64,000 nucleotides of DNA, taken from assembly GCF_019145355.1 (NCBI RefSeq), contig NZ_JAHSTY010000002.1:496001-560000 (forward strand). The letters are read 5' to 3'. Origin of the DNA: Pseudomonas azadiae (GTDB lineage Bacteria; Pseudomonadota; Gammaproteobacteria; Pseudomonadales; Pseudomonadaceae). The position numbers and the translations under genes were made by a program. The notes beneath the pieces were generated by a model that saw only the letters and a list, made by a program, of their open reading frames with translations, had not been told where the DNA came from and ran no database searches. Below, in pieces: positions 61,671 to 62,657 of the stretch (positions within the stretch are counted from its first letter, which is position 1; the number at the start of each line of letters is the position of its first letter).

Positions 61671-61840
61671 GCAGGCGTTCTGGCCTAGTGTTTTTTGGGG
61701 CTTGACCGAATACATATCCGTTATTTAGGTAACGGCTGCTTATGGTTTCGCTCTTACAGCGACTCACTTTTGGAAGGACCCAAAAGTAAGCAAAAGGTCC
61801 TCGCCCCACCACTCGGTGCCTCGCCTAGGCTCGGCATGCC

Positions 61841-61947
61841 CGTAATCCGACATTGATTTGGGGGGCCGCCGCCACGCGCCATCCATGGCGCGGGGCGGCT
61901 AAACCGGCGTCCTGCCGGTTTACCCCCCAAATCACTGTCGAATTACG
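61841..61947. repeat. Inner palindrome of the left arm
   Basis: Outer stem of 25 nt with two mismatches (CGTAAT...GATTTGGGGGG / CCCCCCAAATC...ATTACG), then hairpins GCCGCC..CGCGCCAT/ATGGCGCG..GGCGGC and TAAACCGG/CCGGTTTA. Confidence 0.85.
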
Positions 61948-62038
61948 GCCAGCGTGGTTGACGGGGCGATCCCAGATCAAAAGCAAAAGCGCGGCGGCCT
62001 TAGAGCCGACCGATAATGTGAGCCGGTCCCGGTTCAAT

Positions 62039-62123
62039 GTGGGAGCTGGCTTGCCTGCGATAGCATCAACTGGGTGTACCTGATGTACCGAGTTGTCTGC
62101 ATCGCAGGCAAGCCAGCTCCCAC
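62039..62123. repeat. REP doublet 16, in the centre of the composite inverted repeat
   Basis: GTGGGAGCTGGCTTGCCTGC and its inverted copy. Confidence 0.9.
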
Positions 62124-62157
62124 AGAAAAGCAGATAGGTGGAGTGCCACCTAATCTG

Positions 62158-62193
62158 CTCTGGCTCTGGCTCTGGCTCTGGCTCTGGCTCTGG
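62158..62193. repeat. Hexanucleotide microsatellite (CTCTGG)6
   Basis: Six exact tandem copies of CTCTGG followed by CTGTGC. It is non-coding. Confidence 0.95.
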
Positions 62194-62265
62194 CTGTGCT
62201 TTCGCTTTTGATCTGGCTTTTGATCTTGATCCTAGGCGCCCCGTCAACCACGCTGGCCGAACGCA

Positions 62266-62354
62266 GGCTTGAATCCGTGGGTAACCCGGCAGGACGCCGG
62301 GTTAGCCGTCCTGGGCCATGGATGGCCCATGACGGCGGCCCACGGATTCAAGCC
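62266..62354. repeat. Inner palindrome of the right arm
   Basis: Perfect 16-nt outer stem GGCTTGAATCCGTGGG / CCCACGGATTCAAGCC, then hairpins TAACCCGG/CCGGGTTA and GCCGTC..GGGCCAT/ATGGCCC..GACGGC, corresponding to those in the left arm. Confidence 0.85.
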
Positions 62355-62657
62355 GGAGTGAGGGCACACCGAGCCTAGGCGAGGTGCCGAGTGGTGGGGC
62401 AAGAGCCCTTTGCTTACTTTGGGGCTTTTCCAAAGTGAGTCGCTGTAAAAGCGAAACCATAAGCAGCCGTTACCCAAATAACGGATATGTACACGGTCAA
62501 CCCCAAAGGCTCCCTCGCCACACACCGCAGAAAGTCGTATCGACACCCATGTCGCGATAGACATGGCGTGAGTGTCACCCTTCCTGGCAGTTACAGTCAT
62601 TGCCGTACCCGCCGCGCATGGCGACAATCAACCCCTGCTTCTGTCGATGGATCCGGT

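What the first reader, a model, noticed from the sequence alone, without database searches (positions are those of the whole stretch)
61695..62507. Large inverted repeat whose nested palindromes differ between arms but keep their pairing
The two arms are inverted copies over about 300 bp. Their inner palindromes differ, yet each difference is compensated: GCCGCC/GGCGGC against GCCGTC/GACGGC, CGCGCCAT/ATGGCGCG against TGGGCCAT/ATGGCCCA, AACCGG/CCGGTT against ACCCGG/CCGGGT. The outer stem is CGTAAT..GGGGGG in one arm and GGCTTGAATCCGTGGG in the other, both self-complementary. Such covariation means that the folded structure, not the sequence, is kept. It could be a structured RNA, a single-stranded DNA substrate of a transposase or a site bound by a nucleoid protein. 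I cannot name it.
Basis: seen in the sequence. Interest (0 to 1): 0.8.

Follow-up and report, generated by a model that had tools for sequence, protein, structure and literature searches.

The report
Dispersed inverted pairs of CsrA-type RNAs
A stretch of DNA between two genes of a Pseudomonas-like bacterium holds two back-to-back copies of a known but unexplained folded RNA whose loops look made for the global regulator CsrA/RsmA, and the same back-to-back pair is scattered through many genomes, so such sites may be spread by a repeat element.

Summary
61695-62507 is an inverted pair of ~260-300 bp arms around a REPIN-containing spacer. Both arms score above Rfam's cut-off for TwoAYGGAY (RF01731): 62.9 bits minus strand, 52.6 bits plus strand. 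The RNA-sense strands thus run divergently, centre to outside. Each arm folds into a long stem with two hairpins whose loops are A(N)GGA-X, the RsmE/CsrA recognition form. Across 89 arms 96.3% of 5358 pair cells are standard pairs and 29 of 61 pairs change on both sides (0/500 shuffles). In this genome the element or fragments lie at 18 places. The window site lacks it in all 19 relatives read. RF01731 occurs in 95 of 149 genus and 13 of 185 class genomes; paired arms are mostly divergent. The RNA family, its proposed CsrA link, and 320-bp P. fluorescens repeats (R200) are in print; my searches found no paper joining TwoAYGGAY to a dispersed two-armed repeat. Best reading: a MITE-like element spreading Rsm/CsrA-binding RNAs. 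RNA fold: strong. Rsm binding: likely, untested. Mobilising enzyme and physiological role: unknown.

The parts
61710..61968 (-). Left arm (L type), sense strand runs from the centre outwards; the family-wide conserved end is ...AACGGATATGTA, reaching 61710; the inverted repeat itself continues to 61695
61803..61968 (-). Left RNA core: closing helix, long basal stem, two apical hairpins and a third hairpin
61834..61954 (-). Match to Rfam RF01731 TwoAYGGAY, 62.9 bits (gathering score 43)
61900..61922 (-). Left hairpin 1, loop AGGAC (61909-61913)
61875..61892 (-). Left hairpin 2, loop AUGGAU (61881-61886)
61969..62236 (.). Spacer between the arms, variable between copies, with short six-base repeats next to the arms
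62038..62124 (.). REPIN-like REP doublet (38-nt arms, 84% complementary), repeated widely in this genome
   Evidence: query 344-430 matches
62237..62492 (+). Right arm (R type), sense strand runs from the centre outwards and ends ...AACGGATATGTAC; the inverted repeat itself continues to 62507
62237..62400 (+). Right RNA core
62259..62361 (+). Match to Rfam RF01731 TwoAYGGAY, 52.6 bits (gathering score 43)
62282..62304 (+). Right hairpin 1, loop AGGAC (62291-62295)
62312..62329 (+). Right hairpin 2, loop AUGGAU (62318-62323)
61674..62550 (.). Approximate extent of the insertion relative to relatives that lack it; imperfect direct repeat GCGGTAGGC / GCGATAGAC at its edges

Best explanation
The feature is one copy of a dispersed two-armed repeat between genes. 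Each arm encodes a TwoAYGGAY (RF01731) RNA, and the two sense strands point away from each other. Transcribed, each arm folds into a rigid stem that presents two hairpins with A(N)GGA-X loops, the form bound by the two faces of one CsrA/RsmA/RsmE dimer. Because the arms are inverted, a transcript crossing the element in either direction carries exactly one sense arm. I propose that such transcripts (mostly 3' tails or read-through, since none of 16 classifiable copies lies between divergent genes) bind Rsm protein and either protect or mark that mRNA locally or add to the pool of Rsm decoys. The element multiplies as a MITE-like repeat moved by an unidentified enzyme. Shown: the fold and its covariation, the loop motif, the mostly divergent pairing, dispersal and empty sites. 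Inferred: transcription, Rsm binding, its effect, and the mode of movement.
For: Both arms exceed the RF01731 gathering score. Covariation on 89 arms aligned by sequence alone: 96.3% of cells paired, 29 of 61 pairs with double changes, 507 double-change cells, 0 of 500 shuffles as high, against at most 12 pairs and 69 cells when partners are slid; the same on all 108 model matches, weak and doubtful ones included, in a model-fitted alignment: 94.6% paired, 46 of 61 pairs, slid at most 26. Of 149 distinct arms with two resolved apical loops, GGA is in loop 1 of 148 and loop 2 of 144; the letters before and after GGA vary, as in A(N)GGAX read by RsmE (PMC4005645, passages). Loop 1 is often the CAGGA(U/A/C)G form of CsrB (PMC7652899, passages). 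In another family (G234) unlike stems carry the same loops: 18 of 21 arms read show two GGA hairpins, and 10 of 12 loci are divergent pairs. Window site without the element in 19 of 19 relatives read; six further copies without it in 17 relative loci read.
Against: No expression data; 0 sigma-70-like promoters in 61660-62660. In G306, another family, only 4 of 12 arms read show two GGA hairpins by my script, the rest one; in three distant arms loop 2 is ACGAC. CsrA (PF02599) is present in 13 of 13 RF01731-positive genomes tested but also in 14 of 16 without RF01731, so this says little. The apical stems are long, whereas most SELEX hairpins had at most four contiguous pairs and very stable stems may be a disadvantage (PMC7652899, passages). 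Arms were collected with RNA models or a pattern that already hold GGA (the pattern in loop 1), which inflates the loop counts. The strand test is only a lean: G-U 118 against A-C 52 cells. Target duplication is not consistent between sites; no transposase in the spacers looked at.
Confidence: 0.57

Rival explanations
1. The palindromes serve as DNA: folded single strands or cruciforms are recognised by a transposase supplied in trans, as RAYT enzymes recognise REP hairpins, and the GGA loops are its contact points. RNA folding is a by-product.
For: Dispersed, and missing at the same sites in relatives; REPINs, by the literature propagated by RAYT enzymes (PMC3390384, passages), sit in the spacer; the outer ends are conserved up to a sharp edge at GGATATGTAC. 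Rsm-type proteins themselves bind GGA loops in single-stranded DNA in vitro (PMC9928087, passages), so the loop motif does not cleanly separate RNA from DNA.
Against: Sense more stable than antisense in 64 of 68 arms and G-U exceeds A-C, not expected for DNA; the loops fit RsmE specificity at the fixed and at the free positions; no transposase in the two spacers whose ORFs were listed; no consistent target duplication.
Confidence: 0.23
2. The matched changes come from DNA-level repair of quasi-palindromes (template switching) and from exchange of whole hairpin modules between copies; no folded product is under selection.
For: Many pairs change on both sides with few G-U intermediates (for example GC:62, CG:27 and nothing else); hairpin versions recur on different basal stems, e.g. 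L012, L175, L193.
Against: The strand-specific A(N)GGA loops are kept while the stems change; such repair would not keep a one-strand loop motif across families.
Confidence: 0.1
3. The hairpins act like REP elements, as 3'-end transcription terminators or mRNA stabilisers, without any Rsm protein.
For: 8 of 16 classifiable copies lie between convergent genes, 8 between co-directional and none between divergent genes (rough gene calls), like the tail-tail bias reported for other P. fluorescens repeats (PMC2718517, passages).
Against: Does not explain the conserved GGA loops; only 3 terminator-like sites in the region against a shuffle mean of 1.0, none of them in the cores.
Confidence: 0.1

Closest known systems
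Rfam RF01731 TwoAYGGAY (clan CL00106)
   Same: Both arms score over the gathering cut-off; two apical hairpins with AYGGAY-like loops.
   Different: The discovery paper (PMC2864571, passages) lists it as a probable RNA in human gut, gammaproteobacteria and Clostridiales; the passages seen do not describe inverted pairs or a dispersed repeat.
CsrB/CsrC and RsmX/RsmY/RsmZ sponge RNAs
   Same: Stem-loops with A(N)GGA loops, in twos; PMC4333381 (passages) predicted TwoAYGGAY to bind CsrA.
   Different: Two sites per arm instead of many; long stable stems; many dispersed copies; no promoter or GacA control known.
P. fluorescens intergenic repeat family R200 (PMC2718517, passages)
   Same: 320 bp, 47 copies in SBW25, 8 in Pf-5, intergenic; size and host fit one arm.
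   Different: No structure given in the table seen; its consensus is in a supplement that was not available, so identity is not proven.
REPINs/RAYT and MITEs
   Same: Short, non-coding, dispersed, with inverted symmetry, between genes.
   Different: The arms are not REP sequences (a REPIN is only in the spacer); no proven terminal inverted repeat, target duplication or partner enzyme.

Membership tests
RF01731 TwoAYGGAY | Covariance-model score above the gathering score of 43 bits | tested here: met
   62.9 and 52.6 bits
RF01731 TwoAYGGAY | Two adjacent hairpins with AYGGAY-type loops on a common stem | tested here: met
   Folds and alignment; one loop per arm is the shorter AGGAC in the window
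CsrA/Rsm-binding RNA | A(N)GGA-X presented in hairpin loops, usually in pairs | tested here: met
   Both window arms; GGA in loop 1 of 148 and loop 2 of 144 of 149 arms; not kept in pairs in 8 of 12 arms of G306; consensus from PMC4005645
CsrA/Rsm-binding RNA | Binds CsrA/RsmA/RsmE and is expressed | not testable with these tools
   Needs expression data or a binding assay
CsrB/RsmZ-type sponge sRNA | Many GGA sites in one RNA | tested here: not met
   Two GGA hairpins per core
CsrB/RsmZ-type sponge sRNA | Own promoter and terminator | tested here: inconclusive
   0 promoter-like and 3 terminator-like consensus sites in 61660-62660, a weak test
MITE | Dispersed, non-coding, absent from the same site in relatives | tested here: met
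   18 places in this genome; 19 of 19 relatives read lack it at the window site; no frame open in more than 34 of 89 cores
MITE | Terminal inverted repeats with target-site duplication, shared with an autonomous element | tested here: inconclusive
   Imperfect 9-bp repeat at the window site, about 3 bp at L009, none clear elsewhere; no transposase in two spacers
REPIN | REP doublet as the element itself | tested here: not met
   The REP doublet is only the part 62038-62124; the arms repeat without it matching
R200 repeat of P. fluorescens | Sequence match to the published consensus | not tested

The most novel reading that the evidence does not exclude
A mobile or formerly mobile repeat spreads ready-made CsrA/Rsm-binding RNAs through gammaproteobacterial genomes. 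Its inverted two-arm build delivers one sense copy into any transcript whatever the insertion direction, so genes acquire Rsm control, or the genome acquires an Rsm sponge, by insertion; loss and gain of copies would then rewire or retune the Gac-Rsm network between strains.
Probability: 0.3. Interest if true: 0.8.

Novelty: new variant of a known kind. Interest (0 to 1): 0.57.

Why it matters
TwoAYGGAY was published in 2010 as an RNA of unknown function (PMC2864571) and I found no test of it in my searches. Seeing it as a multi-copy, two-armed, dispersed element gives it a genomic form, predicts a protein partner, and makes two things testable in ordinary laboratory Pseudomonas: whether Rsm proteins bind repeat-derived RNA, and whether repeat number changes how much free RsmA/RsmE a strain has. 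It could also give one of the unexplained intergenic repeat families of P. fluorescens a function.

Tried and rejected
Protein coding: rejected; no frame is open in more than 34 of 89 cores and core lengths fall in all three classes modulo 3 (43, 24, 22).

Plasmid or phage element: blastn found 2 of 72,556 plasmid records and 2 of 50,697 phage records, each match partial (at most 60% of the query) or within the REPIN, so it is mainly a chromosomal repeat.

Idea that the two arms differ in the Y-shaped core in order not to pair with each other: it fits the window (Y 0.77, tail 0.88) but not the set; over the 16 of 27 elements with both tails measurable the means are 0.776 and 0.777 (Y below tail in 10 of 16), and some elements have nearly identical Ys. 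What holds is that in this genome there are two main Y types (5 and 7 of 14 arms compared), each about 95% conserved within type.

Transposon ends: the GGTATCTACACAACTTTCA pair around four single-arm copies looked like a terminal repeat, but the motif occurs 65 times in the genome with up to one mismatch, so it belongs to another repeat.

Autonomous version: of ten spacers printed, ORFs were listed for the two widest (1110 and 811 bp, L047 and L174) and five of those ORFs scanned against Pfam: one DUF6124 match in L047, no transposase. The other spacers were judged by eye only, and the L174 spacer is partly unread.

Recent amplification: with three query copies per genome, copies in G101 and G017 are 73-98% alike in pieces, at best 89.6% over about 800 bp, so no sharp recent insertion could be read.

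CsrA presence as a test: 13 of 13 positives but also 14 of 16 negatives, uninformative.

Papers: searches listed no paper that by title, abstract or the passages read joins TwoAYGGAY or CsrA sites to a dispersed inverted repeat; one search counted 7 papers naming TwoAYGGAY and listed 5, of which I read passages of two.

Full report
WHAT IS THERE. The window is G000:C2:496001-560000. The genus is not named; that it is Pseudomonas is inferred from the named records that carry the same arms. Between a thioesterase-like gene (61227-61670, plus) and an alpha/beta-hydrolase-like gene ending at 63461 (plus; both names are my reading of translations) lie two inverted arms, 61695-62507, around a spacer with a REP doublet at 62038-62124.

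NAME. A scan of the window against Rfam gives four matches over cut-off. Two are sucA-II and sucC leaders; the other two are TwoAYGGAY (RF01731) in these arms: 61834-61954 minus (62.9 bits) and 62259-62361 plus (52.6 bits; cut-off 43). Hence the two RNA-sense strands are divergent, from the centre outwards.

FOLD. In the sense strand each core of 164-166 nt closes with GCCCC..CCAC/GTGG.GGGGC, carries a long basal stem with two apical hairpins, and a third hairpin. Energies are -112.5 and -105.9 kcal/mol, z -8.6 and -8.5. The first loop in both window arms is AGGAC, the second AUGGAU. Folding the whole 813 nt lets the outer arms pair with each other (-607.4 kcal/mol, against -424.1 when pairs may span at most 200 nt; plus strand), but in that fold too the apical hairpins of both cores stay local.

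COPIES IN THIS GENOME. blastn with the 813 bases gave 112 matches, many of them REPINs only. I fetched the places with arm sequence. Ten hold two arms (the window, L002, L003, L005, L006, L007, L009, L010, L011, L014; in L009 and L014 one arm is partly deleted, L010 is cut by a contig end), six hold one arm (L012, L013, L015-L018), and two hold fragments (L019 at a contig end, L020): 18 places, of which the two contig-end ones (L010, L019) could be halves of one copy. Arms fall into an L type, an R type and a third basal-stem type (L005, L006, L010).

COVARIATION. On the 23 complete arms of this genome, 19 of 61 pairs have double changes, but these are few lineages. On a sequence-only alignment of 89 arms, 73 of the 108 model matches plus 16 of the 23, with the structure carried over from the first alignment, 96.3% of 5358 cells pair, 29 of 61 pairs show double changes, and the covariation score is 0.262 against 0.099 +/- 0.003 in shuffles (0 of 500 reach it); sliding partners by 1-3 columns gives 34-40% paired and at most 12 pairs with double changes. 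The 35 rows left out were lower-scoring, cut or antisense. Counting all 108, in an alignment fitted to the model, gives 94.6% paired and 46 of 61 pairs with double changes, slid 16-26 pairs. Relatedness inflates such counts, and the structure came from members of the set. On a tree of the 89 the changes between Watson-Crick types sum to 102; exchange of modules between copies inflates that number, and such exchange is visible (R-type stem with L-type hairpin 2 in L012, L175, L193, L172, L162, L136).

WHICH STRAND. The sense strand folds better than its complement in 64 of 68 distinct arms (20 of 23 own, 44 of 45 other). At paired columns G-U cells outnumber A-C cells, 55 to 24 on 56 arms and 118 to 52 on 89. 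This leans to sense-strand RNA and is not decisive.

LOOPS. Of 153 distinct arms, 149 gave two resolved apical loops. Loop 1 holds GGA in 148, loop 2 in 144; exceptions are AGUAC once in loop 1, and ACGAC three times, AGAGAC once and AUGAAU once in loop 2. Loop 1 was part of the collecting pattern for the largest set, and the Rfam and model searches also favour GGA, so the counts are biased upwards. The free positions are those that RsmE reads least: N before and X after GGA. A high-affinity RsmE site is a hexaloop ANGGAX directly on a stem, and five-nucleotide loops without N also occur in RsmZ, with lower affinity (PMC4005645, passages). CsrB carries CAGGA(U/A/C)G repeats (PMC7652899, passages). 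The authors of PMC4333381 predicted CsrA binding for TwoAYGGAY (passages).

BEYOND THIS GENUS. RF01731 matches at E 0.001 occur in 95 of 149 genus genomes (83 over the cut-off; 1 to 17 matches each, 17 being the most that search scored), 13 of 185 class genomes (11 over) and 25 of 299 phylum genomes (20 over); these draws overlap. Control genomes: 0 of 14 in each. In G234, another family, 11 of 12 loci read show GGA hairpins, 10 as divergent pairs, with wholly different stems and two unlike arms; 18 of 21 arms have two GGA hairpins, with loops such as AGGAU, AGGAG, AGGAA, AAGGAC and AGGGAU. In G306, a third family, 4 of 7 loci are divergent, 1 convergent and 2 single, and only 4 of 12 arms show two GGA hairpins (L051, read, is also divergent). 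So the paired loops are not kept everywhere.

GEOMETRY. Adjacent arms within 1500 bp are divergent in 9 of 9 pairs of this genome (10 of 10 with the window), in 12 of 13 loci picked by hand because two arms were matched, and in 27 of 29 pairs of the named-species set; 48 of 76 loci there show one arm, some at contig ends. By eye, tandem repeats also occur, notably in G619 and G508.

MOBILITY. At the window site the two flanks lie 76-289 bp apart in 16 of 16 relatives read (965 in the window); the longer ones hold other repeats. In three more, G019, G029 and G046, they lie about 3 kb apart, and neither the model nor blastn finds the element there. For six further copies 14 relative loci have flanks at most 99 bp apart, and three loci with larger gaps also lack the element. 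Other large-gap loci were not read. Edges are blurred: an imperfect 9-bp duplication at the window, about 3 bp at L009, none clear elsewhere. The arm is conserved up to GGATATGTAC and then abruptly not (87 tails). No partner enzyme was found. Of 16 classifiable copies (of 18) 8 lie between convergent and 8 between co-directional genes, none between divergent ones; the gene calls are rough, and the script's call for the window was replaced by its nearest gene.

MECHANISM. I commit to: a MITE-like repeat whose transcripts present a pair of Rsm/CsrA sites. Fold, loops, geometry and dispersal are shown. Transcription, binding, consequence and movement are inferred. The strongest rival is a DNA-level substrate for a trans-acting transposase; the quasi-palindrome rival explains double changes but not the one-strand loops.

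COMPARED WITH WHAT IS KNOWN. The RNA family is known, its CsrA link has been proposed, and 320-bp intergenic repeats (R200) of P. fluorescens are known (PMC2718517, passages), probably the same thing but not proven. I found no paper that joins these. I therefore rate it a new variant of a known kind.

Noticed in passing
window 33319-33536 and 39302-39372: Known leader RNAs sucA-II (164.7 bits) and sucC (83.9 bits) in the window.
   Followed up: no
L015 1366-1930, L016, L017, L018: Four single-arm copies lie inside ~570-bp units bounded by an inverted GGTATCTACACAACTTTCA motif; this motif occurs 65 times in the genome with up to one mismatch, a separate repeat family.
   Followed up: partly
window 61974-61995 and 62157-62240; also L047, L151, L154, L174: Next to the 5' end of the arms are runs of six-base units (GCTTTT, GATCTT, GGCTCT), seen in the window and in the nine Pseudomonas-type spacers printed; their role is unexplained.
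   Followed up: no
L009 ~2210-2240 and L014 ~2215-2260: (CAA)n runs of different length at the outer end of two L-type arms.
   Followed up: no
L012 left end, L013 right end: A GTCGGCTCTAAGGCCGCC-like hairpin lies at the inner side of L-type arms and a very similar one outside many arms in the same orientation; in L012 and L013, where the L arm is missing, one remains at that side, as if the arm had been lost between direct repeats.
   Followed up: partly
G619 C1 1379445-1380744 and 3660687-3662476: TwoAYGGAY matches in tandem arrays (starts 427-612 bp apart) in another family, instead of inverted pairs.
   Followed up: no
plasmid NZ_CP015601.1 58031-58576: Partial copy of the element (60% of the query) on a 135-kb plasmid of Pseudomonas antarctica, no annotated feature under it.
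   Followed up: no
L047 597-956 minus: A 119-aa ORF with a DUF6124 domain (101.7 bits) lies in the widest spacer between two arms.
   Followed up: partly
G101 and G017 copies, L251-L270: In these genomes single arms of different copies are up to 95-98% alike while whole elements differ more, as if arms were the unit of exchange.
   Followed up: no
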